Notes: generated by a model from the sequence alone, not told the origin. DNA of 33,135 nucleotides from Herpetosiphonaceae bacterium (GCA_013821605.1 JACDGP010000056.1:1-33135); one strand, 5' to 3'. Positions 12,091 to 29,631 are shown, counted from the stretch's first letter. Translations and numbers: made by a program.

Positions 12091-13263
12091 CTAGGCTGCA
12101 GATGTTCCCGGCTGCGAATGCTCTTGTGCATCCAATGATGCTTCACCCGCATGATCGGCCTTCAAGTTCTCTGGTGGGATCTCCGCCCGGACATCCGCAA
12201 CCGAACTCAGCAAAATATCGAGGACTCCGCCAGCTCGGGCCATCTTAACCGCCTGATGTGTGATCAACTCGCCGGCATTCAAGATAACGTTATCTTGTGG
12301 ATCGAGAATAACACGGTCGGTTGGTCGTCCCAGCGCTGCGTTAATCCGCTGTTCCTCCAACTTTTCGGCTGCCTGATCTTGTGCCCCGCTGACCGTCTCT
12401 TTCAGCTTCTCCCACAAGCCCGTTGCCCCCTGCTTAACGTTTTCGGCTCCTTGTTTTAAACTATCTGCTGCCTGCTGGCCTGTAGCCTGGACCGTATTGC
12501 CGGCCGCTTGCGTCACCGTCAGTCCCGTGGCATCCAACAAATCGTTTTCCACATGGTAGGTGCGCGCACGGTTAATGACTTGCTCGGTCACAATCTGGCC
12601 GGGAGCAGCAATCATTAGCCCTTCGCCGGTGCGAACTGCACGACTGACTCTTCGACCCTTCGCTTGGTCAATCGTCTGGCCGGCCGCAGCGTCCTGTGCA
12701 TCACCAGCCTTTTCGGAGACAGTTGCACTTGCCTCCTGCAAAGCTGCCTTAACACCTCCAACCTGCTCTTCCATCAAGTCCGCCGTTTCGGGCGGTACAA
12801 AGGCCACATCCTCGCCAATCTTCAGGGTTTGAGGTGCCGGAATAAACGAGCGACCGGTATAGCTGTCGGCAAATAGGCCCCCCGAGGCTTCATACCCCTC
12901 AACGGTCCCATTATGCTCATCAAAGTACAGATCCGTGAGCGTCCCGAGATCCCGTCCATCAGTCGTGACAATCTTGGTACCTTTCAGAATATTGTTGCGT
13001 GCCAGAATCGAGCGAAAGCGCTGGTCGCTATCACTACTAATAATGACCTTTTTATTTGGCACGATCACTGCATCCGGACCGATTGCCTGCACGCCGCTCA
13101 ATGGCAGAACTCGAGATGTGCTGAACCAACCGCCTTCATCCACCACAAATCCCAGCAGTTGATTATTTTGCTGGTCAAACACAACGTCGTGGATTTTTTC
13201 AAATTGCTCGCCTGTGTCGAAGCTCACGACCGGCTTGCCAATCAGATCACTTCCTTTGCGCAT
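12091..13263 (-). CDS. PRC-barrel domain protein with LEA-like amphipathic repeats
   Basis: The 390-residue protein starts with two PRC-barrel domains. The first (about 3-80) has [22 protein letters not shown], and the second (about 88-165) has [22 protein letters not shown]. Residues ~165-205 and ~255-300 are Ala/Gln/Glu/Lys-rich amphipathic helices resembling LEA or apolipoprotein repeats. Two short hydrophobic-alternating blocks ([14 protein letters not shown] and [20 protein letters not shown]) flank them. There is no signal peptide. PRC barrels bind RNA, protein or photosynthetic partners, and the function here is unknown. AGGAG (complement of 13273-13277) overlaps the stop codon of the small gene at 13276, so the two are translationally coupled. 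Confidence 0.85.
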
Positions 13264-13948: not shown

Positions 13949-15406
13949 TCACGCTTGGAGCCACTTGCTCAAAATGTAGGGCTGATTTTGTCCTTCTAAC
14001 AGCGGCAAGATAATGATCTCGCCACCGACATCCCGTACAGCATTCGCTTCCGGGAGATCATCCAGCCGGTAATCGCCGCCTTTAACATGGATGTGCGGCC
14101 GTACACTCTGGATGATCGTCTCGGGAGTTAGCTCGTCGAAAAGTACCACATGCTCGACGTAATCGAGTGCTGCGAGGGCTGCTACACGCTCCCTTTCAGG
14201 GAAGGTTGACGCTGTACCCCGTCGTGCGAGTACTCCCCGATCACTGTTAACGCCTACGATCAGCAGGTCACCAAGCTGTCTCGCAGCCCGTAAAAAAGCC
14301 ATATGTCCACTGTTAAGACCATCGAAGACCCCATTGGTAAACACAATACGTTTCCCGGCGTCGCGATACCGGGCCAAGGTTGGTGCTAGTTGCACTGCTA
14401 TTTCGGGCATCAGACCGCTTCGGGCTAGTCGCTGCAAGAGTTCATGCGACGAAACAGTCGCCGTATCCGCTTTGCCGACCACGACTGCGGCAGCCTCGGC
14501 CGCTACTTCGACCGCCACTTGTACCGGTGCACCGGAGGCGAGGGCCAGCGTCAGCGTTGCCGTGAAGGTATCCCCAGCGCCAGAGACATGTGGATTAGCT
14601 ACGGGCCGAGCAGCCACGCGATACGTCGGCTGACCCGCCTCGAACAAGAGTGAGCCGCGTGCTCCCAGCGTCACTAAAGCCCACGTTGAGCCGACATGCT
14701 CCAGTAATTGCTGCCCCAGTGCTTCAAGTTCGTCTCGACCTAAGCTATCGATGTCACGAACGGTCCAGCCAAGTGCACGCTGTGCTTCCACGTGGTTGGG
14801 CGTGATCACGCTAGCTGCCATCCCTCGATAGACCGGCAGATTTTTGGAGTCTACGACCACCAAACGGTTGTATTGCTGCTTTAAGCGACTGATGGTCGTG
14901 ATAATCCGGTCGTTGAGGGCACCATAACAATAGTCTGCTACGATCACGGCATCACATTCCCTGAAGCCATCTGCGAGGCGGTCAAGGAGCTCTGCCTCAA
15001 CGGTCGGCGTGAGTGCTTGCCGGTCGCCTTCGTCCCATCGCACCACATACTGCTGATCGGCTATGATCCGCAGTTTGGTGAGCGTGGTCCGGCCCTGCTC
15101 AACTACGAGCTGCGCCTCGATACCACGCGCCGCAAGCTCATATTGCAGGATACGGCCGGCGTGATCCGGTCCCACGACACTCAAGCAACGTACCTTACCA
15201 CCGAGAGCTGCCAAGTTAGCCGCGGCATTTGCGGCTCCGCCCGGATACTGATGCTTGCGCCCGCTCTGTACAACAGGAACCGGTCCCTCTGGACTAATCC
15301 GCTCTGCACGCCCACTATAGTAGCAGTCAAGAATAACATCGCCCACAACCAATACCTGCTGCTGTCGAAAGCGACCAACCAACTCTACAACATCAAATGC
15401 AGCCAC
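13949..15406 (-). CDS. hldE: Bifunctional D,D-heptose 7-phosphate kinase / heptose 1-phosphate adenylyltransferase (HldE/RfaE)
   Basis: HldE phosphorylates D-glycero-beta-D-manno-heptose 7-phosphate and then couples the 1-phosphate to AMP, giving ADP-heptose. The N-terminal ribokinase-like domain has GDVILD, ISPEGPVPVV, GGAANAA (57-63) and the catalytic SGAGDTF (~273-279). The C-terminal nucleotidyltransferase has TNGVFDGLNSGH, GVNSDRGV, and VKGGDYRLDDLPEA. The usual HxGH motif is NSGH here (Asn365-His368). The chosen GTG at 15406 has GGAGAG seven bases upstream and gives 485 residues. A TTG at 15457 would add 17 residues without such a site. It is divergent from the CdaR-like gene. The neighbouring GmhB, HddA-like kinase and GmhA complete the pathway. 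Confidence 0.93.
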   Translation of the reverse strand: MAAFDVVELVGRFRQQQVLVVGDVILDCYYSGRAERISPEGPVPVVQSGRKHQYPGGAANAAANLAALGGKVRCLSVVGPDHAGRILQYELAARGIEAQLVVEQGRTTLTKLRIIADQQYVVRWDEGDRQALTPTVEAELLDRLADGFRECDAVIVADYCYGALNDRIITTISRLKQQYNRLVVVDSKNLPVYRGMAASVITPNHVEAQRALGWTVRDIDSLGRDELEALGQQLLEHVGSTWALVTLGARGSLLFEAGQPTYRVAARPVANPHVSGAGDTFTATLTLALASGAPVQVAVEVAAEAAAVVVGKADTATVSSHELLQRLARSGLMPEIAVQLAPTLARYRDAGKRIVFTNGVFDGLNSGHMAFLRAARQLGDLLIVGVNSDRGVLARRGTASTFPERERVAALAALDYVEHVVLFDELTPETIIQSVRPHIHVKGGDYRLDDLPEANAVRDVGGEIIILPLLEGQNQPYILSKWLQA

Positions 15407-15650
15407 AAGTGATCTCTCCAGCAAAGCCAGTAGCACGGGCAGGTATTCCTGCAGCAAAAGCTGTGCCAGTTACTTGCGGCTTCGCAATCATAAACGGTGC
15501 GTAATTGGTTGTGGCATGGCTTTTGCTGAACGCTATCCCTTGCAGTCAGCGATGACACGTTTCTTTCTCCGTTCCTCGCGTGTTGTTAAGCATAGATGCC
15601 GCCCCAATCGTTTCACAATCGTTCCTGGGGTGACTCATAAAGAGGTCATT

Positions 15651-16832
15651 GTGCCGCCGACTACCAAACATTTTGAGCAGGTTGCTGAAGCTGTAACCGA
15701 GCGTGCTGCGGAACTGCTGAGTGCGTGCATCTCTGTTGTCGACGCACAGGGCTTTGTGGTCAAGAGCAGCGACCCTAAGCTTATCGGCCTTACATTTGAC
15801 AGGCTAGAAGACGATACCTCCGTATTGCGCGTGCCGCTACAGTTCGATGGTCAACGTGGCGAGGTCGTTGTTCGAGACGTGCAAGTTGGTGAGGCCATCC
15901 CACAACGCCTCACCCGCGAGCTCATCGAACTGATGATTAACCAAACCAAAATCGCGATGCGCTTACCGAATCAGCATGAGCTCAAAGACCGCTTTATCTA
16001 TAATCTTTTGCACGGCCTGACGAACAATGAGGAGGCGATCTTACGCGAAGCGCGTATGCTCGGGATGGATTTTGATCCACCCCGAGCGGTAATTCTGATC
16101 GATGCTACAGACTATATTCATGCACCTGGTCTGGATCAACATGAGGCCGCCGATGCGCAGATTCGCCGCCGGGTGCAATTAATCATTGGCACCATCGTCG
16201 GCTTCTTCCAGTTGCCCAATGATACGATTTGTGCCTATCTAGGGAATGGTGAAGTAGCTGTGCTAAAAGCCAGTAATACCAAAAATCTGGCGACATGGGT
16301 TGAAGCTGGCGAGGGAAGTGAACAAGCGAATGCATCTTGGGCGAACCTGGGCGCGCTACGGCGCGCTGGCGAAAGCTTGCTGCGGCGTCTGCGTAGCGAC
16401 ACCGGAGCGGCGATCAGCATGGGTATTGGCCGTTATCATCCTGGCGTATGCGGCTTGGCCCACTCGTATGAGGATGCACGTGCAGCACTTTCACTGGGAC
16501 GCCGCTTTCATGGCTTGAATGGCGTACACTGCCTTGATCGTCTAGGTGTCGCGGCCTTTATTGGCGTGGCTGATGAGCAAACCAAGATTGACCTAGCAAC
16601 GCACCTCTTGAGCCCCCTTGACCACGAGCCAGAGTTGCTCGCAACGCTCAATACGTTCTTCGTACACAATTGCTCTCCGGGGCCTGCTGCGCAAGCGTTA
16701 TCGATCCACCGTAATACCCTGGGTTACCGGCTTCAAAAAATTGCGTCGTTAACAGGCCTTGACCCCCGCGGCTTCGATCCAGCGGTCCAAATCCGTCTGG
16801 CGCTCCTCTTACGCTCCTTTAAAGCCCCGTAG
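15651..16832 (+). CDS. CdaR-like (sugar diacid recognition) transcriptional regulator
   Basis: A 393-residue regulator. The N-terminal part has the 'diacid recognition' pattern (HFEQVAEAVTERAAELL and CISVVDAQGFVVKSSDPKLIG). A middle GGDEF-like/PucR-type domain follows. The C-terminal PucR/CdaR helix-turn-helix region has FFVHNCSPGPAAQALSIHRN and TLGYRLQKIASLTGLDP. The family usually activates uptake or catabolism genes in response to a small organic acid or sugar acid. The start is uncertain: GTG at 15651 has AGAGG five bases upstream, while in-frame starts as far up as 15474 exist but would overlap the promoter region. The gene is divergent from hldE and precedes the gmhB operon, so it may regulate this heptose locus. 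The ligand is unknown. Confidence 0.85.
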   Translation: MPPTTKHFEQVAEAVTERAAELLSACISVVDAQGFVVKSSDPKLIGLTFDRLEDDTSVLRVPLQFDGQRGEVVVRDVQVGEAIPQRLTRELIELMINQTKIAMRLPNQHELKDRFIYNLLHGLTNNEEAILREARMLGMDFDPPRAVILIDATDYIHAPGLDQHEAADAQIRRRVQLIIGTIVGFFQLPNDTICAYLGNGEVAVLKASNTKNLATWVEAGEGSEQANASWANLGALRRAGESLLRRLRSDTGAAISMGIGRYHPGVCGLAHSYEDARAALSLGRRFHGLNGVHCLDRLGVAAFIGVADEQTKIDLATHLLSPLDHEPELLATLNTFFVHNCSPGPAAQALSIHRNTLGYRLQKIASLTGLDPRGFDPAVQIRLALLLRSFKAP

Positions 16833-16842
16833 CTGTAATTGG

Positions 16843-16893
16843 GCAAATGCACAAATCCTTAAGATAGTATCACTTCATTCTTCGGGCATTTGC
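16843..16893. promoter_or_regulatory. Inverted pair of 8-mers before the gmhB operon
   Basis: GCAAATGC (16843-16850) and GCATTTGC (16886-16893) are reverse complements, separated by 35 nt, in the 146-nt gap between the regulator gene and gmhB. They could be paired operator half-sites or the edges of a weak hairpin. The region between is AT-richer than its surroundings. Confidence 0.3.
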
Positions 16894-16929
16894 ATAATGA
16901 ACTCCCCTAACTGAATCGGTAAGATGGAA

Positions 16930-16951
16930 GTGTCACAGCTATTGGTGACAC
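16930..16951. promoter_or_regulatory. Operator-like palindrome upstream of gmhB
   Basis: GTGTCAC-N8-GTGACAC is a perfect 7-bp inverted repeat, 28 nt before the gmhB start codon. Its spacing fits a dimeric DNA-binding protein. The CdaR-like regulator encoded just upstream is a candidate. A related half-site (TGACAC) also occurs at 15553-15558 in the hldE/cdaR divergent region. Confidence 0.45.
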
Positions 16952-16978
16952 AAATGCTGACAGGTCGGTGGAGAAGCA

Positions 16979-17620
16979 ATGGCGGTACAACGTGGAGTTC
17001 TGCTTGATCGGGATGGAACCCTCGTATATCCGCGCCACTATCCGTCGCGCCCGGACGAGCTACAGCTCTATCCGGGGTTAGCTCCCGAGCTCCGTTTACT
17101 TCAATTGGCTGGCTTTCGACTCGTCGTCGTTACCAACCAGGGCGGTTTGGCTCACGGCTTGTTTAGCCCAACCGCACTTGATGCCATGCATGCGCATCTC
17201 CAGGCCCAGCTCCACGGGCAAGGCGTAACCCTTGACGGCATCTATTACTGCCCCCACCATCCGGCTGGTAGCATCCCCGAACTCGCCGTGGAATGCACCT
17301 GCCGCAAGCCGCAACCCGGCATGCTATTGCGTGCGGCTGCCGAGCTTGATTTGGATCTCGAACAATCTTGGTTCGTCGGCGATATCCTTGATGATATTGA
17401 GGCCGGCCGTCGTGCCAGTTGCCGCACCCTCCTCGTTGATCTTGGGACCGAATCGTTGCCCGGTACCGAACTCCGCACCCCGCACTTCGTTGCTCGCACA
17501 ACTGTTCACGCCCTTCAAATAATCGCTGCTGTCGAACAACTGGGCGATCCGGTTGAACTCGACTATCTACCGCCAAGCTGGCAGTGGAGCACTGTTCATG
17601 AGCAGGACCATGCCTATTAG
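16979..17620 (+). CDS. gmhB: D-glycero-D-manno-heptose 1,7-bisphosphate 7-phosphatase (GmhB)
   Basis: This HAD-family phosphatase removes the 7-phosphate from heptose 1,7-bisphosphate in ADP- or GDP-heptose biosynthesis. Seen: nucleophile motif LLDRDGT with Asp10 and Asp12, TNQGG (52-56), the zinc loop ligands Cys91, His93, Cys106 and Cys108 around CPHHP...CTCRKP, and the C-terminal acidic GDILDD motif. At 213 residues the length is slightly above the usual ~190. A GGAG about five bases before the ATG supports the start. It is the first gene of the heptose/glycosyltransferase operon. Its anomer preference (alpha or beta bisphosphate) cannot be read from the sequence, and it could serve either pathway branch. 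Confidence 0.93.
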   Translation: MAVQRGVLLDRDGTLVYPRHYPSRPDELQLYPGLAPELRLLQLAGFRLVVVTNQGGLAHGLFSPTALDAMHAHLQAQLHGQGVTLDGIYYCPHHPAGSIPELAVECTCRKPQPGMLLRAAAELDLDLEQSWFVGDILDDIEAGRRASCRTLLVDLGTESLPGTELRTPHFVARTTVHALQIIAAVEQLGDPVELDYLPPSWQWSTVHEQDHAY

Positions 17621-18722
17621 TGTGCCTGAGCCATGGCAAGCAGTCCAACGTGTGCTCCTTGTGCGTCTGGATAATTTAGGCGATGTGTTGGTGACGACGC
17701 CTGCCATCCATGCAGTCAAGCAATCTCTTCCTCATGCCGCCCTGACATTGCTGGCAAGTCCCATTGGTGCCCAGGCTGGTCGGCTCAACCCCGATGTCGA
17801 TGATGTGATCGTCTACCAGGCACCATGGATGGACCCTTGGCAACGGTTGCCCCAGGATCCCGCCCGCGAACAACAAATCATCGCGGTGCTTCGCGAGCGA
17901 AACTTTGACGCTGCCATCATCTTTACCTCCTTTCGGCAAAGCTCTTTGCCGTCGGCCTACTTGTGCTATCTGGCAGGTATTCCTTTACGTCTCGCGGCGT
18001 CGATTGATGGTCCCGGATCGTTACTAACGACGCGGCACAAACATCCCGAACAAATGATGCACGAGGTTGAGCGTGGTCTGGATCTGGTCGGTGCTATCGG
18101 CCTCTACACCCTAGAACGTGATCTGGTGCTGCGTATCCCAGACGGTGCGCGCAGTGGGGTGGACGATGTTCTATCCTCCCACGGCATCGCGCACGCCCAC
18201 CCACTGGTTGTGATTCATCCCGGTTGTACTATGCCTGCTCGTACCTATCCGGCTGCCATGTTTGCCGAAGTCGCCGGTCTGCTGGTGGAACGCTTAGGGG
18301 CGACGGTCGTCGTGACCGGTGCCGCAGATGAAATCGAACTGGTAGAAGAAGTTCGATGGGGGATGCAGTCGGAGCATGCTGCACAGGCCATTCCACTGGC
18401 TGGTGTACTTCCTTTTCCTGCCTTCTGCGCCCTGATCGAGCGTGCTGACCTAACGATCACCAATAACACCGGCCCCATGCACGTTGCCGCAGCGCTGAAA
18501 ACACCGGTTGTCGCCTTGTTCGCCTTGACCAACCCGCCCGAGCAATGGGGTCCCTGGCACGTGCCGCACCGCCTGTTGAACCACGATGTACCGTGCCGCA
18601 TCTGCTATAGCCGCATCTGTCCCTATGGCCACGAGTGCCTGCGGCTGGTCCATCCCGAGATAGTCGTAGCGGCAGCTGCTGAGCTGTTGCCGGTCACAGC
18701 ATTCGCGGAGGTGGACCGGTGA
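17598..18722 (+). CDS. GT9 heptosyltransferase-like protein 1
   Basis: This is a glycosyltransferase family 9 protein (ADP-heptose:LPS heptosyltransferase type), a GT-B enzyme acting at the inner face of the membrane. Seen: an N-terminal VLLVRLDNLGDVLVTTPA with the conserved Asp of GDV (about residue 29), a second-domain VVIHPGCTMPARTYPA, NNTGPMHVAAALKTPVVALF (the nucleotide-sugar site), and a C-terminal Cys cluster CRICYSRICPYGHEC. The chosen ATG at 17598 (374 residues) overlaps the end of gmhB and has GGAG eight bases upstream. An in-frame ATG at 17553 would also overlap gmhB. The acceptor is unknown. It shares motifs throughout with the next gene. Confidence 0.9.
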   Translation: MSRTMPISVPEPWQAVQRVLLVRLDNLGDVLVTTPAIHAVKQSLPHAALTLLASPIGAQAGRLNPDVDDVIVYQAPWMDPWQRLPQDPAREQQIIAVLRERNFDAAIIFTSFRQSSLPSAYLCYLAGIPLRLAASIDGPGSLLTTRHKHPEQMMHEVERGLDLVGAIGLYTLERDLVLRIPDGARSGVDDVLSSHGIAHAHPLVVIHPGCTMPARTYPAAMFAEVAGLLVERLGATVVVTGAADEIELVEEVRWGMQSEHAAQAIPLAGVLPFPAFCALIERADLTITNNTGPMHVAAALKTPVVALFALTNPPEQWGPWHVPHRLLNHDVPCRICYSRICPYGHECLRLVHPEIVVAAAAELLPVTAFAEVDR

Positions 18723-19807
18723 GCGATCGCGCACAATGGCAGGCTGCTCGGAACATTGTAGCGATCCGTCCCGATAACATCGGCGATGTCGTCATGCTTG
18801 GCCCGGCGCTCCGCGCAGTCAAGCAAACCTCCCCCGATGCTCGTATCACCTTGCTATCCAGTCGCGCGGGTGCTACTGCCGCTCCCCTATTGCCTTGGGT
18901 CGATGACGTCATTCCTGCTCGTACGCTCTGGCAGGACCTTGGTCATTTAGCCTTCGATCCTGAGCGCGAATGGGAGTTCGTGCAGCTGTTAAGGACTCGG
19001 CGCTTCGATGCAGCCTTGATCTTTACCTCCTTCAGCCAGACACCACATGTTCCTGGCTATCTGTGTTACCTCGCCGGCATTCCCCTGCGTGCCGGTGAGG
19101 GCAAAGAGTTTGGCGGCGGCACGTTATCGATGGAGTTGCGGGGTGCGCCCGACGATCTGCACCAAGTTGAGCGTAATCTGCGGCTGATTGAAGCACTTGG
19201 CTTCACAGTCACGGATCACGATCTGGAGGTGGAGATTGCTCCCGCAGCCCGTGCTGCGGCGCAAGGCCTACTTGCTCAGCTGGGCATCGATCCGGCCGCG
19301 CCCTATCTCCTCTTTCATCCCGGTGCCAGTGCCCGAGCCCGCCGTTATCCGCCCGAACGCTCAGGCGTGGTCGCACGTCTTTTAACGGCGCATGGTTGGC
19401 CGGTGCTGCTAACGGGTGTTGATCGCGAGGCCGAGTTGATTGCGACTGTCGCCGCTGCAGCTCCCGAGGCGAAAGTGTTGGTCGGTGGTACGTCGCTCGC
19501 CGAGTACGCGGCCTTGGTCGAACGCGCCGCACTCGTCATCTGCGGCAATACCCTGCCTTTGCACCTGGCCGACGCACTCCTGACACCCGTACTTGTGCTC
19601 TATTCGGGGACCGACTACGAATCACAATGGCGACCCCGCCGTACGCCTTCGCGTCTGCTGCGCGAACCTACACCTTGCCATCCCTGCTATCTGTTTCAGT
19701 GTCCTATCGGGCTACCCTGCTTAGATATTGCGCCCGATGCCGTAGTCACCGCCGCCGAGGAGTTGCTCCAATCGGCCCGGCGTACCTCCGTGAGCATGAG
19801 CATATGA
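18719..19807 (+). CDS. GT9 heptosyltransferase-like protein 2
   Basis: The second GT9 protein, 362 residues, starts at a GTG that overlaps the previous stop (GTGA, 4 nt). Seen: IVAIRPDNIGDVVMLGPALR, RFDAALIFTSFSQT, FHPGASARARRYPPE, the weak donor-site strand ICGNTLPLHLADAL, and a C-terminal Cys cluster CHPCYLFQCPIGLPC. It is clearly paralogous to protein 1: both share DN-x-GDV, FDAA-x-IFTSF and YLCYLAGIPLR. The donor-site NTGPMH of protein 1 is NTLPLH here, which may change donor or activity. It is co-translated with its neighbours. The donor is likely a nucleotide heptose made by this locus, by inference. Confidence 0.9.
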   Translation: MSDRAQWQAARNIVAIRPDNIGDVVMLGPALRAVKQTSPDARITLLSSRAGATAAPLLPWVDDVIPARTLWQDLGHLAFDPEREWEFVQLLRTRRFDAALIFTSFSQTPHVPGYLCYLAGIPLRAGEGKEFGGGTLSMELRGAPDDLHQVERNLRLIEALGFTVTDHDLEVEIAPAARAAAQGLLAQLGIDPAAPYLLFHPGASARARRYPPERSGVVARLLTAHGWPVLLTGVDREAELIATVAAAAPEAKVLVGGTSLAEYAALVERAALVICGNTLPLHLADALLTPVLVLYSGTDYESQWRPRRTPSRLLREPTPCHPCYLFQCPIGLPCLDIAPDAVVTAAEELLQSARRTSVSMSI

Positions 19808-20841
19808 TGCCGCCGGTACACAAGATCGCCGTGTTTCGGGCCTTGTTCCTCGGTGATCTCCTGTGCAGCATACCCGCCTTCCGCGCCTTACGCCACCGCT
19901 TTCCTGGTGCCGAGATCAGCCTCATCGGTTTGCCCTGGGCGGCTGACTTCGTCGAGCATTGCCCGTACCTTGATCGTTTTGTTAGCTTTCCGGGCTACCG
20001 CGGCATTGCCGAGGTCGCCTATGACCCGGCACGAACGACCGCCTTTTTCGACGCAGCCCAGGTCGAAGGATATGACCTAGCGCTCCAGATGCACGGCGAC
20101 GGCAACGTGAGCAACAGCTTCGTAACTGCCCTAGGCGCACGCCAAACGCTCGGCTACCGCCAGGGTGACCTGGAGCCACGTTTGACGCTCTCCCTCCCGT
20201 ATGTGCTGCCGGAACACGAGGTCCGACGCTGGCTACGCTTGGTGCAGTTGCTAGGCACTTCAGCCCGTGACGAACGCTTGGAATGGCTCATCACTCCGAC
20301 CGAAGCTGCTGCTGCCCATGCCTTGTTGCCCTCAGCTCCCGCTGGCCCCTTGGTGGGCTTGCACGTGGGCTCGAAAGAGCTCGCCCGCCGCTGGCCGTTC
20401 GCCTCGTTTGCCCGCCTGGGCGACGAAATTCGCCGTCGCTACGCCGCCCGTATTGTGTTGACCGGCAGCGCTGCCGAACGTCCTGTCGCTGCGGCTATTG
20501 CGCATCTCATGGAGTGCCCAGCCACCAATCTTTGTGGCCTAACCGATCTCGCCACCTTCGCGGCGACGATTGCCCAACTTGATCTCTTGGTGACCAACGA
20601 CACCGGTGCCTCGCACCTTGCTGCTGCCACCGCTACCCGCAGTGTGGTGCTCTTTGGCCCGTCACGACCGGCACAATGGGCGCCCCTTGATCGGGAGCGC
20701 CATGTGGTGATCGATGCCATGCAGGAGTTAGCGCTGCCAGATGGCGCTGCTGCCCTCCAACGCCTGCCGGTCAAGCGGGTGATGGAGGCGTGCAACGAAC
20801 TCCTCCGCTCGCAGCCCCAGGAGCTATCATGCGTCGCCTGA
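19804..20841 (+). CDS. GT9 glycosyltransferase-like protein 3 without the Cys cluster
   Basis: The third GT9 protein. The ATG at 19804 overlaps the previous stop by four bases (ATGA), giving 345 residues. A longer in-frame reading from 19627 lies inside the previous gene and is not used. Seen: IAVFRALFLGDLLCSIPAFR (the GD motif near residues 17-18), YDLALQMHGDGNVSNSF, GLHVGSKELARRWPFASFA, NDTGASHLAAATATRSVVLFGPS, and a C-terminal helix KRVMEACNELL. It lacks the C-terminal Cys cluster of proteins 1 and 2 and is more distant. It overlaps the next gene by 13 nt. It may add a different sugar or a later heptose; this is inference. Confidence 0.9.
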   Translation: MMPPVHKIAVFRALFLGDLLCSIPAFRALRHRFPGAEISLIGLPWAADFVEHCPYLDRFVSFPGYRGIAEVAYDPARTTAFFDAAQVEGYDLALQMHGDGNVSNSFVTALGARQTLGYRQGDLEPRLTLSLPYVLPEHEVRRWLRLVQLLGTSARDERLEWLITPTEAAAAHALLPSAPAGPLVGLHVGSKELARRWPFASFARLGDEIRRRYAARIVLTGSAAERPVAAAIAHLMECPATNLCGLTDLATFAATIAQLDLLVTNDTGASHLAAATATRSVVLFGPSRPAQWAPLDRERHVVIDAMQELALPDGAAALQRLPVKRVMEACNELLRSQPQELSCVA

Positions 20842-21779
20842 AGATTTTAATGTGGCACATCCACGGCAGCTACCTGAATAGCATGGCCCGTATCGACCAC
20901 GACTGGTATTTGCCGATCAAGCCCGGTCGTCCCGAGGGCTATGGTGGCCGTGGACCAACCTTTGACCTTCCGCCCTATGTTCGGGAAGTGCCTGCTGACG
21001 AGGTCCGTAACCTTGATCTCGACCTCATCATCTACCAGACCCCCAAAAACTACTTCGAGGACGGTCCCGAGCTGCTCACTGCGGCCCAACAACGGCTGCC
21101 GCAAATCTACCTAGAGCACAACACGCCCAAGCCGCATCCTACCGACTCGCATCACCCCATCAACGATCCCAATCTCCTGCTGGTTCACGTGACTCACTAC
21201 AATCGTCTCATGTGGGACAACGGCCGCACCCCGACGGTTGTGATTGAGCATAGCGTGGCGATTGATCCACGTGCCGTCTACACCGGCGAGCGTGCCCAAG
21301 GCATTACAGTCATTAATGGCATGCAACGCCGCCCCCGCATCGCTGGCTATGACATCTTTTTGCAAGCCCAAGCACAGCTTCCCCTAACGTCGGTCGGCAT
21401 GCAAACCGAAGCCCTGGGTGGGCTGGGTGATGTGCCCTATCGCGACCTTCACCGGCAGCTTGCGGCCTACCGCTTCATGTTTAGTCCCATGCGCTACACC
21501 AGCCTGCCCCTAGCAGTGATCGAAGGCTTGCTGATCGGTCTGCCGGTCGTAGCACTTGCGACGACTGAACTACCGACGGTCATTACCAACGGCGAGACCG
21601 GCTATGTTTCGGCCAATGTCGATGCCCTCATTGACCACATGCACGCGCTGCTCGATAACCCGCAGCTGGCCCAGGAGATTGGGGCCAATGGACGCCGCAT
21701 GGCACAGAAACGTTTCGGCTTGGAGCGTTTTATCCGTGATTGGAACCAAGCCTTCGCGCGTGTAGCAGGGGAACTGTGA
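20829..21779 (+). CDS. GT4-type glycosyltransferase, short form
   Basis: A 316-residue GT-B protein. The N-terminal domain is reduced (ILMWHIHGSYLNSMARI, then DLDLIIYQTPKNY and LPQIYLEHNTPKPHPTDS). The C-terminal part is a glycosyl transferases group 1 domain: YRFMFSPMRYTSLPLAVIEGLLIGLPVV, TNGETGYVS and ANGRRMAQKRFGLERF. The C-terminal nucleotide-sugar region has RYTSLPLAVIE, in which the first Glu of the usual E-x7-E is not obvious. AGGAG lies five bases before the ATG at 20829, inside the end of the previous gene (13-nt overlap). It is not a plain fragment, because both Rossmann halves are present. Donor and acceptor are unknown. Confidence 0.82.
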   Translation: MRRLKILMWHIHGSYLNSMARIDHDWYLPIKPGRPEGYGGRGPTFDLPPYVREVPADEVRNLDLDLIIYQTPKNYFEDGPELLTAAQQRLPQIYLEHNTPKPHPTDSHHPINDPNLLLVHVTHYNRLMWDNGRTPTVVIEHSVAIDPRAVYTGERAQGITVINGMQRRPRIAGYDIFLQAQAQLPLTSVGMQTEALGGLGDVPYRDLHRQLAAYRFMFSPMRYTSLPLAVIEGLLIGLPVVALATTELPTVITNGETGYVSANVDALIDHMHALLDNPQLAQEIGANGRRMAQKRFGLERFIRDWNQAFARVAGEL

Positions 21780-23089
21780 TGGCGGTCATCGGCAATCAGC
21801 CCCTACGGCCCTTACGCATCGCCTGGGTCAGCGAACATGCGAGTCCGTTGGCGCTACTAGGTAGCCAAGATGCCGGTGGTCAAAATGTCTACGTTGACGA
21901 GGTGAGCCGCGGCCTCGCTCAGCTCGGCTATGCCGTCGACATTTTCACCCGTCGCGATCATGCCGATCTTTCAGAAGTCGTCGCTTGGTCCCCTGGCGTT
22001 CGCATCATCAACCTGCCGGTAGGCCCGGCGCAGTTCGTCCCCAAAGACCAGCTCTGGCCCCTCATGCCATCTTTCCGAACGGAGCTGGAAGCTTGGAGCA
22101 AGCGTGCTGGTCTCCGCTATGACCTGCTTCATGGCAATTTCTGGATGTCCGGTGCAGTTGTGGCCGAACTTGGTGCGCAGCTCGCTATCCCGGTGGTCCA
22201 AATCTTTCATGCTATGGGCAAGACCAAGCAGCAACATCAGGGCGCAGCGGACGGGAGTCCCGCTGATCGCATCGCCACCGAAACCGAGATCATCAAGCGC
22301 GTGACCCGCGTCATTGCTCAATGTCCCGCCGAAGCAGCCGAGTTGATTGACGATTATGGTGCCGACCCCCACAAGGTGGTAACGATTCCTTCAGCCGTCA
22401 ACATTGAGCGTTTCCACCCCCTGCCACACGAGCTTGCCCGGCAGTCTATTGGCCTGCCTCCCGACGGCTTAATCGTCGCCTATGTCGGGCGTATGATGCC
22501 GCGCAAAGATGTTCGCAATCTCGTCCACGCCATGGCGCTCGTCCTCCGTCAGACCGATTTACCGCTCCGCTTGCTGCTTGTGGGCGGTGAAACTGACCAG
22601 CCCGATCCGCTCTTGACCCCTGAAATTGGTGTGCTGCAATCGTTAGCACAAGAGCTGGGCATCAGTGACCACCTCATCTTTACCGGCAAGCGGCAGCCCG
22701 ACGTGCTCCATCGCTATTATGCTGCTGCCGACATCATTGTGACAACGCCGTGGTACGAACCCTTTGGCCTCACACCGCTTGAAGCTATGGCCTGTGGCCG
22801 TCCGGTTATTGGCTCTGCTGTAGGTGGTATTCCCTTTACGATCAACGACGGTGTAACGGGTCTGCTCGTACCACCGCGCGATCCACCGGTCTTGGCTGCT
22901 GCTCTCCTTGACCTCCTTCAGAATGGCGCTCGACGGCTCGGGATGGGCCTCGCGGCGCGTAACCGTGTCGAGCAGTTGTTCACTTGGCGCACAGTTGCCG
23001 AGCGGACCTCTGCGCTTTACCGGCAGTTGATCAATGAACAAGCCGCCGCCTCGCATGGCTCAGGAGCAAAAGCTTGTGGCAGTAGTTGA
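21779..23089 (+). CDS. GT4 glycosyltransferase (sucrose-phosphate-synthase/MshA-like)
   Basis: A 436-residue GT4 protein. The N-terminal GGQNVYVDEVSRGLAQLGY, IFTRRDH, and LLHGNFWMSG are typical of the MshA and sucrose phosphate synthase branch. The donor half has PSAVNIERFHPL, AYVGRMMPRKDVRNLV, and EPFGLTPLEAMACGRPVIGS with the E-x7-E pair. The start ATG shares one base with the previous stop (TGATG). A GTG at 21776 is also in frame. It ends overlapping the next gene. The donor nucleotide sugar cannot be read from sequence. Homologues use UDP- or GDP-sugars, so it probably extends the glycan with a non-heptose sugar. Confidence 0.88.
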   Translation: MAVIGNQPLRPLRIAWVSEHASPLALLGSQDAGGQNVYVDEVSRGLAQLGYAVDIFTRRDHADLSEVVAWSPGVRIINLPVGPAQFVPKDQLWPLMPSFRTELEAWSKRAGLRYDLLHGNFWMSGAVVAELGAQLAIPVVQIFHAMGKTKQQHQGAADGSPADRIATETEIIKRVTRVIAQCPAEAAELIDDYGADPHKVVTIPSAVNIERFHPLPHELARQSIGLPPDGLIVAYVGRMMPRKDVRNLVHAMALVLRQTDLPLRLLLVGGETDQPDPLLTPEIGVLQSLAQELGISDHLIFTGKRQPDVLHRYYAAADIIVTTPWYEPFGLTPLEAMACGRPVIGSAVGGIPFTINDGVTGLLVPPRDPPVLAAALLDLLQNGARRLGMGLAARNRVEQLFTWRTVAERTSALYRQLINEQAAASHGSGAKACGSS

Positions 23090-24017
23090 TGTGTTGATCC
23101 CGACCTGTGGTCGCAAGACTGGCCTCGCTATGGTGCTAGCCAGCTTGCTTGGTCAAACCTTCACCGATTGGGATCTCACCATCTCGGATCAAACGCCCGA
23201 CGACGGCTATTACTTGGATAGCATCGAGATTCAAACTGCGGTCCGCGCGCTGGAGTGGCATGGTCATCGTGTCACCTTGCACCGCCACCTGCCTCGTCAA
23301 GGTATGGCCGAGCAGCGTCATTTCCTGCTTGAGCAGAGTCGCGCCCCGTATGTGCATTATCTGGATGATGATGTCTTGCTCGCCCCGCAGGTTATGGAGC
23401 GTATGTTGCAGGTCCTCACAACCGAGCGTTGTGGCTTCGTCGGTTGTCCGGCCACCGGTCTTGATTATCTCCATGACGTACGGCCCTATCAACAACATAT
23501 TGAGCTATGGAACGGTCCTGTTCGCCCGGAGCCCTTCGCCCCCTATCGCATCCCGGTGCCGCGCCACAAGATCAATAATGCAGCCAACCCCCTACATCTC
23601 GAGCGCAAGCTGGCGGCGAACGGTGCCGTTATCCGTTACAAGGTCGCCTGGGTCGGCGGTGCGAACGTACTATACGACCGGAACAAGCTGTTGAGCGTGG
23701 GTGGTTTCTCCTTCTGGGATCGTCTACCACCCGAACATGCTGGCGAAGAAGTGGTCGCGCAATATCTGCTGATCCGCAAATATGGTGGCTGCGGCATCTT
23801 ACCCAGCGGTACCTACCACCTTGGTCTGCCGACCGCCGTCGCTGATCGCCGTCGCAATGCGACCGAACTTTTTGCTGACCTCATTGCGGAATATCACGTC
23901 GAGCCGGCGGGACCAGTTGAGCCTCTGCCGCCCCGTCGCGTTCGACTGGTCCGCGATGCCCAGCGCATCCGTCAACACCTCTATCGTATCAAAGGAGTAA
24001 CCCATGGCAAACACTAA
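23076..24017 (+). CDS. GT2-type glycosyltransferase
   Basis: A GT-A protein of 313 residues from the chosen GTG at 23076. Seen: VVDVLIPTCGRKTGLAMVLASLLGQTF and WDLTISDQT at the start, the metal-binding acidic motif in YVHYLDDDVLLAP, and a late acceptor region VGGANVLYDRNKLLSVGGFSFW. AGGAG at 23062-23066 sits nine bases before the GTG, which overlaps the previous stop by 14 nt. ATG starts at 23034 and 23055 are alternatives. Its stop overlaps the dehydrogenase start by 14 nt. Substrates are unknown. The start choice is moderately uncertain, but the gene itself is clear. Confidence 0.88.
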   Translation: MAVVDVLIPTCGRKTGLAMVLASLLGQTFTDWDLTISDQTPDDGYYLDSIEIQTAVRALEWHGHRVTLHRHLPRQGMAEQRHFLLEQSRAPYVHYLDDDVLLAPQVMERMLQVLTTERCGFVGCPATGLDYLHDVRPYQQHIELWNGPVRPEPFAPYRIPVPRHKINNAANPLHLERKLAANGAVIRYKVAWVGGANVLYDRNKLLSVGGFSFWDRLPPEHAGEEVVAQYLLIRKYGGCGILPSGTYHLGLPTAVADRRRNATELFADLIAEYHVEPAGPVEPLPPRRVRLVRDAQRIRQHLYRIKGVTHGKH

Positions 24018-24750
24018 TCTCCATGGCAAGGTCGTACTGGTTACCGGCGCAGGAAGTGGTTTGGGCGAGGCGACCTCGCGTGCCTTTGCTCAGGCCGGTG
24101 CCAAAGTAGCCTGTATCGATATTAACCAGCAGGCGGCCGAACGCGTCAGTGCTGAGCTACGCGCGCAGGATGTGGATACAATTGGTTTAGGCTGCGACGT
24201 CAGTGATGCCGCCGCCGTAACGCAAACGGTCAACGCTGTCGTGGAGCGTTGGGACCGCTTGGATGTCGTGGTTAACTGCGCGGCGATCGACTACACGCGG
24301 TCCGTCGATGAGATGACCATCGCTCAATGGGATCAAGTGATCGCCGTCAACCTGCGTGGTCCCTTCCTGCTGGCCAAGGCTGCGATGGCCGAAATGCGCC
24401 GCGTGGGCGAAGGTGGCCATATCGTTAATATTGCTTCCACTGCTGCGACCCGTGCCTGGGCCAATGCTGCTGCCTATCATGCCTCGAAATGGGGCTTGGT
24501 TGGTTTCGGTCGCGGCCTGGGCGTCGAAGGTCGGCCCGACAATATCAAGGTCACCACCGTGATCCCGGGCGGCATGCAAACCCATTTCTTCGACAAGTTC
24601 CCCGAGCAAGGGATTCCGATGCCCGACCAGGCCAATCTACAGGATCCGGCGAACGTCGCCGAAACCATCCTGTTTGCGGTGCAAATGCCGGCCCAGTCGG
24701 TGATGCAAGAAGTGATGGTAACGCCGCTGACCGAAACAAGTTGGCCCTAG
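24004..24750 (+). CDS. Short-chain dehydrogenase/reductase
   Basis: This is a classical SDR of 248 residues that reduces or oxidises a sugar or sugar nucleotide, or a carbonyl, with NAD(P). Seen: VVLVTGAGSGLGE (cofactor loop Gly15-Gly21), Asp after the second strand (CIDIN, favouring NAD over NADP), and a catalytic Ser145, Tyr158, Lys162 triad (SIAS-like NIASTAA, YHASK). It is too short and of the wrong SDR type to be the HldD epimerase (extended SDR). AAAGGAG lies about six bases before the ATG. The substrate may be a sugar intermediate of the surrounding glycan pathway; this is inference from context. Confidence 0.9.
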   Translation: MANTNLHGKVVLVTGAGSGLGEATSRAFAQAGAKVACIDINQQAAERVSAELRAQDVDTIGLGCDVSDAAAVTQTVNAVVERWDRLDVVVNCAAIDYTRSVDEMTIAQWDQVIAVNLRGPFLLAKAAMAEMRRVGEGGHIVNIASTAATRAWANAAAYHASKWGLVGFGRGLGVEGRPDNIKVTTVIPGGMQTHFFDKFPEQGIPMPDQANLQDPANVAETILFAVQMPAQSVMQEVMVTPLTETSWP

Positions 24751-24769
24751 GCCTTCAGGACGCTCTGTC

Positions 24770-25816
24770 ATGGTGATCGTACGTGCGCCGGTCCGTATCA
24801 GCTTTGGTGGTGGTGGCACCGATCTAGAGGCCTATTACGCCGTCTGGGGTGGCTTCGTCGTGAGCGCGGCCATTTCGCACTACTGCTATGCCATGGCGCG
24901 CCCGTCGCGAGATGGTGGTACGCACATCTATTCCGCCGATTACCATGCCTCAGCATCATATCCACCTGGCGAGGTGTTGGCCGTAGCGGAGCCGCTGATC
25001 CTCCCCAAGGCGGTGTTGACCTGGTTTACGGAGCAAGGCTTGCTCAACCATGGCGTCGACCTGCTACTTGCTGCCGATGTACCGCCTGGGACCGGACTGG
25101 GCTCATCCAGCGCCATGACCGTAGCCATCATCCGAGCCCTGGCCGAACATACTGCGATGCCCATCACTACCACCCGTCTGTCCGAGCTTGCGTGTATGGT
25201 CGAAATCGAACGACTGGGAATGCCAATCGGCAAGCAGGATCAATATGCCAGTGCCCTGGGTGGCCTCAATACCCTTGAGTTCAGTAGTGCCGAGGTCGCT
25301 ATCCAACCGCTCGGCCTGTCGTCCTCAACCATGACAGCTCTCAGCGACCGCTTACTGTTGTTCGGGACCGGCCAACTGCGGCACTCGGCCAGTATATTAA
25401 GCGGCCAGCGCCGTGATACTGCCACCCAGCCCATAGTGATCGAGGCCTTGCATCAGCTCAAGTCGTTAGCCCACCAGATGTGCGCGGCGTTGCGTGCCGG
25501 TGAACTAGATCACTTTGGCCACCTACTCGATCTAGGCTGGCACCACAAGCGTAGCCTGTCGGCCTCGGTCTCTTCCCCGGCCATTGATGGCTGGTTTGCA
25601 GCTGCGCGTGCGGCAGGTGCCCTTGGTGGCAAGCTTACTGGGGCTGGCGGCGGTGGCTTCTTACTGTTGTATTGCCCCCTAGTAGCTCAGTCCAAGGTGC
25701 GCCAACAGCTGCAAGTCTGCGGTCTCCAAGAGTTGCCCTTCAGCTTCGATACCGCCGGAGTCCAGCTACTCGCTGGAGCCCAGCCTGCTCGCGAACTGAG
25801 CATGCTCCCCGCATAG
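24770..25816 (+). CDS. hddA: GHMP kinase, D-glycero-alpha-D-manno-heptose 7-phosphate kinase-like (HddA)
   Basis: HddA makes heptose 1,7-bisphosphate (alpha anomer) in the GDP-heptose route. Seen: RAPVRISFGGGGTDLEAYY at the start, the ATP-binding loop PPGTGLGSSSA (105-115), IGKQDQYASALGG, and the C-terminal GHMP motif KLTGAGGGGF. This arrangement of sugar 7-phosphate GHMP kinases matches HddA and related fucokinase-like enzymes. The 348-residue length fits. AGGA lies about nine bases before the ATG. It lies next to gmhA, as in known heptose clusters. HldE in the same window has the beta-anomer kinase, so one of the two routes may be incomplete. HddC (the GDP-transferase) is not seen. Confidence 0.85.
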   Translation: MVIVRAPVRISFGGGGTDLEAYYAVWGGFVVSAAISHYCYAMARPSRDGGTHIYSADYHASASYPPGEVLAVAEPLILPKAVLTWFTEQGLLNHGVDLLLAADVPPGTGLGSSSAMTVAIIRALAEHTAMPITTTRLSELACMVEIERLGMPIGKQDQYASALGGLNTLEFSSAEVAIQPLGLSSSTMTALSDRLLLFGTGQLRHSASILSGQRRDTATQPIVIEALHQLKSLAHQMCAALRAGELDHFGHLLDLGWHHKRSLSASVSSPAIDGWFAAARAAGALGGKLTGAGGGGFLLLYCPLVAQSKVRQQLQVCGLQELPFSFDTAGVQLLAGAQPARELSMLPA

Positions 25817-25859
25817 TCTTTATGTACGCGCCTACCAGCGTGAGGAGTGGAGTTTGAAT

Positions 25860-26480
25860 ATGCGCGATGATATCGAGTGCTATTGGCTTGCTTTAGCGGA
25901 GCTGGCCCGTAACATGCCGTTTTCCTCGATTGCGGAAGTGGCGGAGATCTTATTCGCTTGCCATGAGCAAGATGGCACGGTCTTCGTGCTCGGCAATGGG
26001 GGGAGTGCGGCTACTGCCTCCCACTTTGCCTGTGATTTAGCCAAAGGTACACAAACGCCCGGTGTGACGCCCTTCCGCGTGATGCCGTTGACCGACAATA
26101 TGCCCTTGCTTACCGCCTGGGCCAACGATACAAGCTATGAGCGCGTCTTTGCCGAGCAGCTTAAAACCCTGGTCCGTCCCGGCGACGTGGTCTTGGTCAT
26201 TAGCGTGAGCGGCAACTCGCCGAATGTGCTGCATGCTGTCGACACCGCGAACGCCATGGGTGCAATGACGATCGCCCTTGCTGGTGAGAGTGGCGGCGAG
26301 GTTGGCAAGCTCGCGGCGTTAACCCTCCGGGTGCCTGGTGGCTCAATCGAGCAAGTCGAAGATGCCCACTCGGCCATTACCCATAGTTTGTGCGTCGCCC
26401 TCCGCGAGCGCTTACGTAGCCGCGCTGAGCTACCTCAATGGGCGAACTCGGAGCCGTTCGTTCTAGAACTGGAGCCGTAA
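25860..26480 (+). CDS. gmhA: Sedoheptulose 7-phosphate isomerase (GmhA)
   Basis: GmhA converts sedoheptulose 7-phosphate to D-glycero-D-manno-heptose 7-phosphate, the first committed step of heptose synthesis. The 206-residue SIS-domain protein has VFVLGNGGSAATASHFACDLAKG, SVSGNSPNVLHAV, and VEDAHSAITHSLC with conserved Glu/His active-site positions. GAGGAG at 25842-25847 and GGAG at 25849-25852 precede the ATG at 25860. A TTG at 25854 is in frame but less likely. It is the last gene of the operon. A hairpin 18 nt downstream separates it from the convergent topoisomerase gene. Confidence 0.93.
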   Translation: MRDDIECYWLALAELARNMPFSSIAEVAEILFACHEQDGTVFVLGNGGSAATASHFACDLAKGTQTPGVTPFRVMPLTDNMPLLTAWANDTSYERVFAEQLKTLVRPGDVVLVISVSGNSPNVLHAVDTANAMGAMTIALAGESGGEVGKLAALTLRVPGGSIEQVEDAHSAITHSLCVALRERLRSRAELPQWANSEPFVLELEP

Positions 26481-26497: not shown

Positions 26498-26517
26498 GAG
26501 CCGGCTTACGCCGGCTC
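26498..26517. terminator. Bidirectional hairpin between gmhA and topoisomerase IB
   Basis: GAGCCGGC-TTAC-GCCGGCTC is a perfect 8-bp GC-rich stem with a 4-nt loop. The TAA stop of the minus-strand topoisomerase gene lies in the loop (complement of 26506-26508). It most likely ends both convergent transcripts. There is no clear T-tract on either side. Confidence 0.6.
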
Positions 26518-27648: not shown

Positions 27649-27697
27649 GTGCCAACCGGCTACGCACCTTTAATCAATATTGCGAAAGGTGGTTTCC

Positions 27698-29530
27698 TTG
27701 CCGCAGCCACTCGTTTCGGTTCTGATGCCGACCTACCAGCACGCCTTCTTTATCCGGCGTGCCATTGCTAGCCTCCTTGCCCAAACCTTCGACGATTGGG
27801 AGCTCGTTATCATTGATGACAGCTCCCCTGATAGCACTACAACTGTCGTCCAATCCTTGCTAGACGACTCCCGCATTCACTATCATCGCTTGAGCGAGAA
27901 CATGGGCCTCGGTGCCGCCTTGAACGCGGGACTGCATCACGCACGTGGCTCGTTGATAGCCTATTTGCCATCCGATGACCTGTATTATCGCGGGCATCTT
28001 GCCTTGCTTGTCGCAGCCCTTAATGCGCATCCCACCGCGTCACTGGCCTATGGGGGCCTGCGCCATCACTATAATCGTTCTTCCCCTGGTCAGATTGACG
28101 GCGCGCCGTTACAACTGGTCCAGGTTATGCACCGTCGTAATGCGCACGAGTGGCTCGAACGCGATGAACTGGTGACCGACGACCTAGAGCGCATGTACTG
28201 GCACGCCCTCAGTCCGCACGGACCCTTCATCGCCACCGAACAGATCTCTGCCGAATGGGTTGATCACCCTGCTCAAATGCACAAGGTCATCCAGGAGCCC
28301 TTAGGCGGCATCAATCCTTTTCGATCCCGTTATCACGTCAAACACCCGCTTCGTTTTCATACCTCAGTCGGCAACTTGATCGATGAGGTTGCACATTACC
28401 GCCGTTTCAGGGAACGACCTGATACGCCCTTAGCAGCCGACGGCCTTAAAATCTTGCTTGTCGGGGAACTGGCCTACAATGCTGACCGTGTGTTGGCGCT
28501 TGAAGAGCGTGGTCATAAACTCTACGGCTTATGGACCGATGAACCGGCTTGGTTTAACATGGTCGGACCCTTGCCCTTTGGTCACGTGGAAGATCTACCG
28601 CGTACCGGCTGGCGCGACGCGATTAAGCGTATCCAGCCCGACATTATCTATGCCTTGCTGAATTGGCAGACCGTGCCGTTCGCCCATCATGTGCTGTGCG
28701 AGAACCCCGGTATCCCCTTTATCTGGCATTTCAAAGAGGGTCCATTTATCTGCCTCGAAAAAGGTATATGGAACCAGCTTGTCGCGCTCTATACGCGTGC
28801 CGATGGTCAAATCTACTCGAGCCCTGAACTGCGTGATTGGTTTGAAACCGTTGTTCCCGGCCTAACTACTGCCGCTCCCTCTCTTGTGCTAGATGGCGAT
28901 CTTCCCAAACGCGATTGGTTTACCCAGCCTCGCACTCCACTCCTCTCACAGGAGGACGGAGAATTTCATACCGTCGTGCCGGGCCGACCCATTGGCCTGC
29001 ATCCTTGGACGGTCGGTGATTTGGCCGAGCAGCGTATTCACCTCCATTTTTATGGTGACTTTACTCAAGGCCTGTGGCGTAGCTGGATCGAGAAGGCGAA
29101 CCGCGTCGCCGCTGGCTTTCTGCATCTTCATTCCAACGTCGATCAGGAAGCGTGGGTCACCGAGTTTTCCCAATACGATGCCGGCTGGCTCCATTTCTTC
29201 CGCAGCGAGAACGCGGGCGATCTCCGGCGTGCCAACTGGGACGATCTGAATTACCCGGCTCGCATCGCGACCTTGGCCGTCGCCGGCTTGCCGCTGCTAC
29301 AATACGATAACTACAATGCCCTTGTGGCATCACAAACCTTGGCTCACCGCCTTGATCTTGGTCTATTTTTTTCAGATATGGCACAGTTGCGCGCACAGCT
29401 AAGCGACGAGCAGCGCATGGCGCAGCTCCACGACAATGTATGGCGGCGGCGCGAGCAGTTTATGTTTGATACGCATGCCGATAATCTAATTTCTTTCATG
29501 CGACAGGTAATCACCCATCACACTCATTAG
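27698..29530 (+). CDS. Two-domain glycosyltransferase (GT2 + GT4-like), copy 1
   Basis: A 610-residue protein. Residues ~1-235 are a GT-A family 2 domain (SVLMPTYQHAFFIRRAIASL, IIDDSSPDSTT, and the acidic PSDDLYY). Residues ~245-610 have a second glycosyltransferase-like half beginning KILLVGELAYNADRVLALEERGHK, with IPFIWHFKEGPFICLEKG and SQYDAGWLHFFRSENAGDLRRANWDDL. This half has the look of a GT-B/GT4 enzyme without the classic E-x7-E. The TTG at 27698 has AAAGGTGG just upstream and gives the expected N-terminus. A TTG at 27680 and a GTG at 27689 are also in frame. The next gene is a paralogue. Sugar specificities are unknown. Confidence 0.85.
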   Translation: MPQPLVSVLMPTYQHAFFIRRAIASLLAQTFDDWELVIIDDSSPDSTTTVVQSLLDDSRIHYHRLSENMGLGAALNAGLHHARGSLIAYLPSDDLYYRGHLALLVAALNAHPTASLAYGGLRHHYNRSSPGQIDGAPLQLVQVMHRRNAHEWLERDELVTDDLERMYWHALSPHGPFIATEQISAEWVDHPAQMHKVIQEPLGGINPFRSRYHVKHPLRFHTSVGNLIDEVAHYRRFRERPDTPLAADGLKILLVGELAYNADRVLALEERGHKLYGLWTDEPAWFNMVGPLPFGHVEDLPRTGWRDAIKRIQPDIIYALLNWQTVPFAHHVLCENPGIPFIWHFKEGPFICLEKGIWNQLVALYTRADGQIYSSPELRDWFETVVPGLTTAAPSLVLDGDLPKRDWFTQPRTPLLSQEDGEFHTVVPGRPIGLHPWTVGDLAEQRIHLHFYGDFTQGLWRSWIEKANRVAAGFLHLHSNVDQEAWVTEFSQYDAGWLHFFRSENAGDLRRANWDDLNYPARIATLAVAGLPLLQYDNYNALVASQTLAHRLDLGLFFSDMAQLRAQLSDEQRMAQLHDNVWRRREQFMFDTHADNLISFMRQVITHHTH

Positions 29531-29631
29531 CTCCGCTGCTCTCGTCTAGCCTGTTGCTTGCTTGACCGGGGATGTTTGGCGTGCAGCTTGCTATACGCCC
29601 GAGGGAATACGTAGATAAGGGTATGGAAAGC

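What the first reader, a model, noticed from the sequence alone, without database searches (positions are those of the whole stretch)
13949..26480. Complete heptose activation and transfer locus in a probable non-LPS lineage
GmhA, GmhB, HldE, a HddA-like kinase and three GT9 heptosyltransferase-like proteins sit in one locus with GT4 and GT2 genes. GT9 enzymes are known from LPS core assembly. If the host is a Chloroflexota member, a group usually described as lacking LPS, the heptose must go to another glycan: an S-layer or other glycoprotein, an exopolysaccharide or a glycolipid. The genes are seen directly; host lineage and acceptor are inferred.
Basis: partly seen in the sequence, partly recalled or inferred. 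Interest (0 to 1): 0.75.

Follow-up and report, generated by a model that had tools for sequence, protein, structure and literature searches.

The report
Heptose-glycan gene cassette without LPS
This is a mobile set of genes for making and attaching the seven-carbon sugar heptose, normally known from the endotoxin (LPS) of Gram-negative bacteria, in a Chloroflexota bacterium that lacks the endotoxin genes tested; the same set recurs in other Chloroflexota and on Burkholderiales and actinobacterial replicons, and what it decorates is unknown.

Summary
The genes are real and form one operon plus a divergent HldE. The host is Chloroflexota, and its genome (99.6% complete) has no LpxC, WaaA N-domain or Omp85, so LPS is an unlikely destination. 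Intact HldA+HldC and a canonical GmhA lie on other contigs. HldD was not found above cut-off.

The main new result is comparative. The cassette (GmhA' GmhB HldE GT9a GT9b GT9c GT4a GT4b GT2a SDR) occurs patchily in 36 of 400 sampled Chloroflexota genomes, none with LpxC. Rearranged forms lie on Burkholderiales and Actinomycetota replicons, and the GT4a tree mixes phyla, so it has moved horizontally. No exporter, polymerase, ligase or acceptor gene recurs beside it.

Best reading: a self-contained cassette building a short D,D-heptose-containing oligosaccharide on an unidentified acceptor that is not lipid A. The acceptor is inferred, not shown. New variant of a known kind.

The parts
13949..15457 (-). 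HldE-like protein: PfkB kinase half (GAGD motif kept) plus nucleotidyltransferase half with degenerate HxGH (NSGH) and no STT motif
   Evidence: the copy in a genome of the same family (L131, 62% identical) is also degenerate (SSAQ)
15474..16832 (+). PucR-type regulator, probable dedicated regulator
   Evidence: linked to the cassette in 11 of 34 Chloroflexota loci and beside HldE in L010
16979..17620 (+). GmhB-like HAD phosphatase; DRDGT, CxHH...CxCRKP and GDxxDD motifs present
17553..18722 (+). GT9a glycosyltransferase (true start probably downstream, about 17598-17610)
   Evidence: GD motif conserved; D of NDxGPxH is N in nearly all orthologs across phyla
18719..19807 (+). GT9b glycosyltransferase; found in 19 of 34 cassettes
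19627..20841 (+). GT9c glycosyltransferase (true start probably about 19801); GD and NDTG motifs kept
20790..21779 (+). GT4a glycosyltransferase, used as marker of the cassette (true start probably about 20829)
21740..23089 (+). GT4b glycosyltransferase of the MshA / sucrose-phosphate-synthase branch
   Evidence: MshA model 290 bits, cut-off 462; best PDB relative 6kih, Tll1590
23034..24017 (+). GT2a glycosyltransferase, no transmembrane segment
24004..24750 (+). classical SDR oxidoreductase, a near-constant member of the cassette
24770..25816 (+). HddA-like GHMP heptose-7-phosphate kinase
   Evidence: PDB relatives 3k85 and 4usk
25854..26480 (+). SIS-domain protein of the GmhA family with altered D61, E68 and Q175 positions, as in nearly all SIS genes next to HddA
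27680..29530 (+). long GT2 protein (GT2L1), beyond TopIB; follows the cassette also in Thermomicrobiales L012 and L017; membership uncertain
29572..31572 (+). long GT2 protein (GT2L2), tandem paralog; membership uncertain

Best explanation
A horizontally mobile heptose-glycosylation cassette. It carries heptose-phosphate enzymes (HldE, GmhB, HddA, SIS protein) and a near-fixed set of soluble glycosyltransferases (three GT9, two GT4, one GT2) plus an SDR. These build a short, defined oligosaccharide containing D-glycero-D-manno-heptose in the cytoplasm, much as the waa enzymes build the LPS inner core, but on an acceptor that is not lipid A. In this host the nucleotidyl-transfer step is probably done in trans by the monodomain HldC on contig C161, and the isomerase step by the GmhA on C71. 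Shown: genes, order, conservation, spread between phyla, absence of the LPS markers tested, motif changes. Inferred: sugar identity, oligosaccharide product, membrane-bound acceptor (most likely a lipid or lipid carrier), complementation in trans.
For: Family assignments. Conserved order in 34 Chloroflexota loci: GT4b 33, GT9a 33, GT9c 32, SDR 31, GmhB 27, HldE 27, canonical GmhA 23. 36 of 400 Chloroflexota genomes carry GT4a at 50% identity or more. Rearranged homologous sets on Burkholderiales and Actinomycetota replicons. GT4a tree with Burkholderiales grouped with four Chloroflexota sequences and Actinomycetota grouped with two others. No LpxC, WaaA N-domain or Omp85 in the host; no LpxC in 36 carriers. 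HldD not above cut-off. Intact HldA-HldC next to a MurJ-like flippase gene on C161. No clear transmembrane segment in the cassette proteins apart from one marginal stretch in GT4a.
Against: No biochemistry. GT9 membership does not prove a heptose donor, and GT9a and GT9b carry N where GT9c and solved relatives have D. Burkholderiales carriers make LPS (established knowledge), so there the product could touch LPS. No exporter or ligase is encoded with it, so a surface glycan would need one from elsewhere; the host does have seven Wzy_C proteins. A soluble product fits the same facts.
Confidence: 0.5

Rival explanations
1. The cassette makes a soluble heptose-containing glycoside or secondary metabolite. 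The MshA/sucrose-phosphate-synthase-like GT4b starts on a small phosphorylated acceptor, and variable members (carbamoyltransferase; PIG-L deacetylase and UDP-glucuronate decarboxylase in Burkholderiales) tailor it.
For: GT4b is nearest to enzymes with soluble acceptors; no membrane protein, flippase or ligase in the cassette or recurring beside it; patchy spread and location on accessory replicons; carbamoyltransferase in 7 of 34 Chloroflexota cassettes and in Burkholderiales and Streptomyces; heptose is known in natural products such as septacidin (PMC11573728).
Against: No PKS, NRPS or aglycone gene recurs in the flanks; six glycosyltransferases are many for a simple glycoside; the host itself has no PF02543 carbamoyltransferase.
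Confidence: 0.25
2. A heptosylated S-layer or other glycoprotein, or a heptose exopolysaccharide (two of the reader's options).
For: D-glycero-D-manno-heptose occurs in S-layer glycans made by the GDP route with HddA (established knowledge); HddA is in the window; the host has Wzy_C proteins elsewhere.
Against: No HddC-type nucleotidyltransferase signature in the window or near HddA in the related Chloroflexota loci; no S-layer, polymerase, polysaccharide exporter or oligosaccharyltransferase gene recurs in the flanks; GT set near-fixed rather than variable as in EPS loci.
Confidence: 0.15
3. The locus does not act in heptose metabolism in this host family: with a degenerate HldE half and an altered GmhA it has drifted, and the GTs use other sugars.
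For: Motif losses in HldE here and in L131 of the same family; D to N changes in GT9a and GT9b.
Against: All frames are open; kinase, GmhB, HddA and GT9c motifs are intact; HldA, HldC and GmhA with intact motifs are present in trans; the GT9a N is conserved across phyla, so it is not decay.
Confidence: 0.1

Closest known systems
ADP-heptose pathway and waa (rfa) inner-core loci of Gram-negative bacteria
   Same: GmhA, HldE, GmhB and GT9 families; soluble peripheral GTs building a short glycan without exporter genes in the operon
   Different: No LpxC, WaaA or Omp85 in the host; no HldD above cut-off; extra GT4, GT2 and SDR genes; cassette shared between phyla
[quoted passage not shown]
   Same: HddA-like kinase next to a SIS protein
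   Different: No HddC signature nearby; SIS protein has altered active-site positions; HldE also present
NDP-heptose enzymes outside LPS (septacidin, protein heptosylation; PMC11573728)
   Same: Same heptose-activating families serving non-LPS products; that paper itself suggests studying genes adjacent to these enzymes
   Different: Product and acceptor unknown here; this GT9-GT4-SDR set was not found described in the papers searched
MshA-type GT4 enzymes
   Same: GT4b scores 290 bits with the MshA model
   Different: Below the cut-off of 462; no other mycothiol gene seen in the window

Membership tests
ADP-heptose biosynthesis (within the locus) | GmhA isomerase with D61 and zinc ligands H64, E68, Q175, H183 (B. 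pseudomallei numbering) | tested here: not met
   H64 and H183 kept; D61 is T, E68 is D, Q175 is E (residues from PMC5705639). The two ligand changes are conservative, so activity is uncertain rather than excluded. The C71 copy keeps all five
ADP-heptose biosynthesis (within the locus) | Heptose-7-phosphate kinase half of HldE | tested here: met
   PfkB domain with GAGD; TIGR02198 272 bits, below its cut-off of 345
ADP-heptose biosynthesis (within the locus) | Nucleotidyltransferase half with HxGH and STT motifs | tested here: not met
   NSGH and no STT; HldC with both motifs on C161
ADP-heptose biosynthesis (within the locus) | GmhB phosphatase | tested here: met
   Motifs present; 151 bits against a cut-off of 178
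ADP-heptose biosynthesis (L,D form) | HldD 6-epimerase | tested here: not met
   Best own-genome hit 124 bits, cut-off 274.6
LPS core locus | Lipid A and Kdo-transfer genes and Omp85 in the same genome | tested here: not met
   LpxC, PF04413 and Omp85 absent, controls positive; lpxA, lpxD, lptD not searched
LPS core locus | GT9 enzymes using ADP-heptose | not testable with these tools
   GT9 domain and GD motif present; D of NDxG is N in GT9a and GT9b
GDP-heptose (S-layer/capsule) pathway | HddA kinase | tested here: met
   165 bits to NF049969 (cut-off 600); PDB relatives 3k85, 4usk
GDP-heptose (S-layer/capsule) pathway | HddC guanylyltransferase | tested here: inconclusive
   No signature in the window or near HddA in related Chloroflexota loci; the rest of the genome was not searched

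The most novel reading that the evidence does not exclude
A mobile, self-contained pathway that builds an LPS-core-like heptose oligosaccharide on a previously unknown, non-lipid-A anchor in bacteria without LPS, and that has passed between Chloroflexota, Burkholderiales and Actinomycetota.
Probability: 0.3. Interest if true: 0.75.

Novelty: new variant of a known kind. Interest (0 to 1): 0.5.

Why it matters
GT9 and HldE genes are routinely annotated as LPS core biosynthesis. Here they form a conserved, mobile cassette in genomes without LpxC, so that label misleads and heptose has another use. The cassette is present in cultured carriers (Dictyobacter arantiisoli, Ktedonosporobacter rubrisoli) and in Burkholderiales, so the question of what heptose is for outside LPS becomes directly testable.

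Tried and rejected
Stress-gene linkage: the window has DUF892, PRC-barrel and PNPOx-like genes near the cassette, and Burkholderiales neighbours include Mn catalase, CsbD and BON proteins. A Pfam tally of 138 flanking proteins from Chloroflexota loci against 134 control proteins showed only DUF892, twice, so the link is not general. Dedicated exporter, polymerase or ligase: none recurs. HddC beside HddA: not found with strict or loose signature scans in Chloroflexota loci. Carbamoyltransferase in the host: absent. A bleomycin-like sugar module came to mind from memory, but the paper search gave nothing usable. Literature searches found no description of this cassette. No structure prediction was run: the families were already clear by sequence, and a model would not show the donor or acceptor.

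Full report
OBSERVATION. The window is one whole contig (C174) of a 5.88 Mb, 259-contig, 99.6% complete assembly. hmmscan confirms an HldE-like bifunctional protein, a PucR-type regulator, a GmhB-like HAD phosphatase, three GT9, two GT4 and one GT2 glycosyltransferases, an SDR, an HddA-like GHMP kinase and a SIS/GmhA-like protein between 13949 and 26480. Genes from GmhB to GmhA run in one direction with overlaps or gaps below 40 bp, as an operon would. HldE lies upstream on the other strand, with PucR between. None of the heptose proteins reaches its NCBIfam equivalog cut-off, so they are family members rather than certified orthologs.

HOST. HddA relatives in public genomes are nearly all Chloroflexota. 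The phylum is therefore Chloroflexota. Lower rank is not settled; the best named MutS2 match is a Thermomicrobiales MAG at 51%. LpxC, the WaaA N-terminal domain and Omp85 give no match in the host, while positive controls ring. This agrees with a published survey finding no lpxB, lpxC, kdsA or bamA in the Chloroflexi genomes it reported (PMC5826079). LpxA, LpxD and LptD were not searched separately.

IS THE PATHWAY COMPLETE IN THE LOCUS? Not on motif evidence. The nucleotidyltransferase half of HldE reads FDGLNSGH where most relatives have FDILHAGH, and its C-terminus reads EGQNQPY where most relatives have STS or STT. A paper on heptose nucleotidyltransferases describes an STT-containing motif as the hallmark of the promiscuous ones (PMC11573728). 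The copy in a genome of the same family (L131, 62% identical) is also degenerate (SSAQ, no STT), and L138 looks degenerate too, so the loss is recurrent. The GmhA-like protein keeps H64 and H183 but has T for D61, D for E68 and E for Q175 of B. pseudomallei GmhA; H64, E68, Q175 and H183 bind the active-site zinc and mutations in them, and in D61, reduce activity (PMC5705639; alignments). The two ligand changes are chemically conservative, so the protein may still be an isomerase. The same changes mark nearly all SIS proteins next to HddA, whereas many relatives carry in addition a SIS gene with the canonical residues upstream of GmhB. The host keeps canonical copies elsewhere: a GmhA and a GmhB-like gene on C71, and HldA plus a monodomain HldC with intact HxGH and STT motifs on C161, directly followed by a gene that by its sequence looks like a MurJ-family flippase. 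HldD is not found above cut-off, so D,D-heptose is expected if heptose is made. No HddC signature was seen in the window or beside HddA in the related Chloroflexota loci.

A CONSERVED, MOBILE CASSETTE. GT4a was used as marker. It occurs at 50% identity or more in 36 of 400 sampled Chloroflexota genomes: 3 of 3 in the host family, 0 of 40 in other families of the host order, and scattered through others. Of 34 loci read out, 33 have GT4b, 33 GT9a, 32 GT9c, 31 SDR, 27 GmhB, 27 HldE, 23 a canonical GmhA, 19 GT9b, 19 GT2a, 11 PucR, 10 HddA and 7 a carbamoyltransferase; some loci are cut by contig ends, so these are lower bounds. The usual order is (PucR) GmhA' GmhB HldE GT9a GT9b GT9c GT4a GT4b GT2a SDR (HddA SIS). 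None of the 36 carriers has LpxC. Rearranged homologous sets lie on Burkholderia, Paraburkholderia, Caballeronia, Cupriavidus, Streptomyces, Nonomuraea and Arthrobacter replicons, found with GT4a and again with GT9a. Annotated examples show HAD, GT9, carbamoyltransferase, GT2, GT9, GT4, with SIS and rfaE2 also in Streptomyces. In the GT4a tree the four Burkholderiales sequences group with four Chloroflexota sequences, and the three Actinomycetota sequences with two others, each with full or near-full support. This indicates transfer between phyla; direction is not shown.

HOW IT MAY WORK. The GTs have no clear transmembrane helices (one marginal stretch in GT4a) and the set is nearly fixed, which suggests a defined oligosaccharide made in the cytoplasm, as the waa enzymes make the LPS inner core. 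All three GT9 keep the GD motif. GT9c keeps NDTG, but GT9a (conserved across phyla) and GT9b have N for D, so their donors may not be heptose. GT4b belongs to the MshA/sucrose-phosphate-synthase branch. A Pfam tally of flanks against control regions shows no recurring exporter, polymerase, ligase or S-layer gene; the host does have seven Wzy_C proteins elsewhere. A membrane-bound acceptor that is not lipid A is the preferred inference, and a soluble glycoside the main rival. The acceptor is not shown.

VERDICT. The interpretation that heptose, if made, goes to something other than LPS is well supported; its destination is open. The cross-phylum cassette is the new element. I found no description of it in the papers searched, but that library lacks most subscription journals.

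Noticed in passing
L162 (G000:C161) 5335-8519: Monodomain HldA and HldC genes directly followed by a MurJ/MviN-like flippase gene in the host genome, suggesting a second heptose system tied to a lipid-linked precursor.
   Followed up: partly
L155 (G000:C43) 6919-8518: Two tandem GmhA-like SIS genes inside what looks by sequence like a NiFe-hydrogenase maturation (hyp) cluster.
   Followed up: no
L019-L057: HddA plus variant SIS gene pairs are widespread in Chloroflexota without a recognisable HddC beside them; their product is unclear.
   Followed up: partly
window 27680-31572: Tandem long GT2 proteins (616 and 666 aa) without transmembrane segments; the pair also follows HddA-GmhA in a Thermomicrobiales MAG (L017).
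   Followed up: partly
window 10836-13263: General-stress-type genes (PNPOx-like, DUF892, PRC-barrel) next to the cassette; Burkholderiales cassettes sit near Mn catalase, CsbD and BON genes, but the link is not general in Chloroflexota.
   Followed up: yes
window 26506-27624: Topoisomerase IB gene between the cassette and the long GT2 genes; a TopIB gene is also near the cassette in L120, L139 and L150.
   Followed up: no
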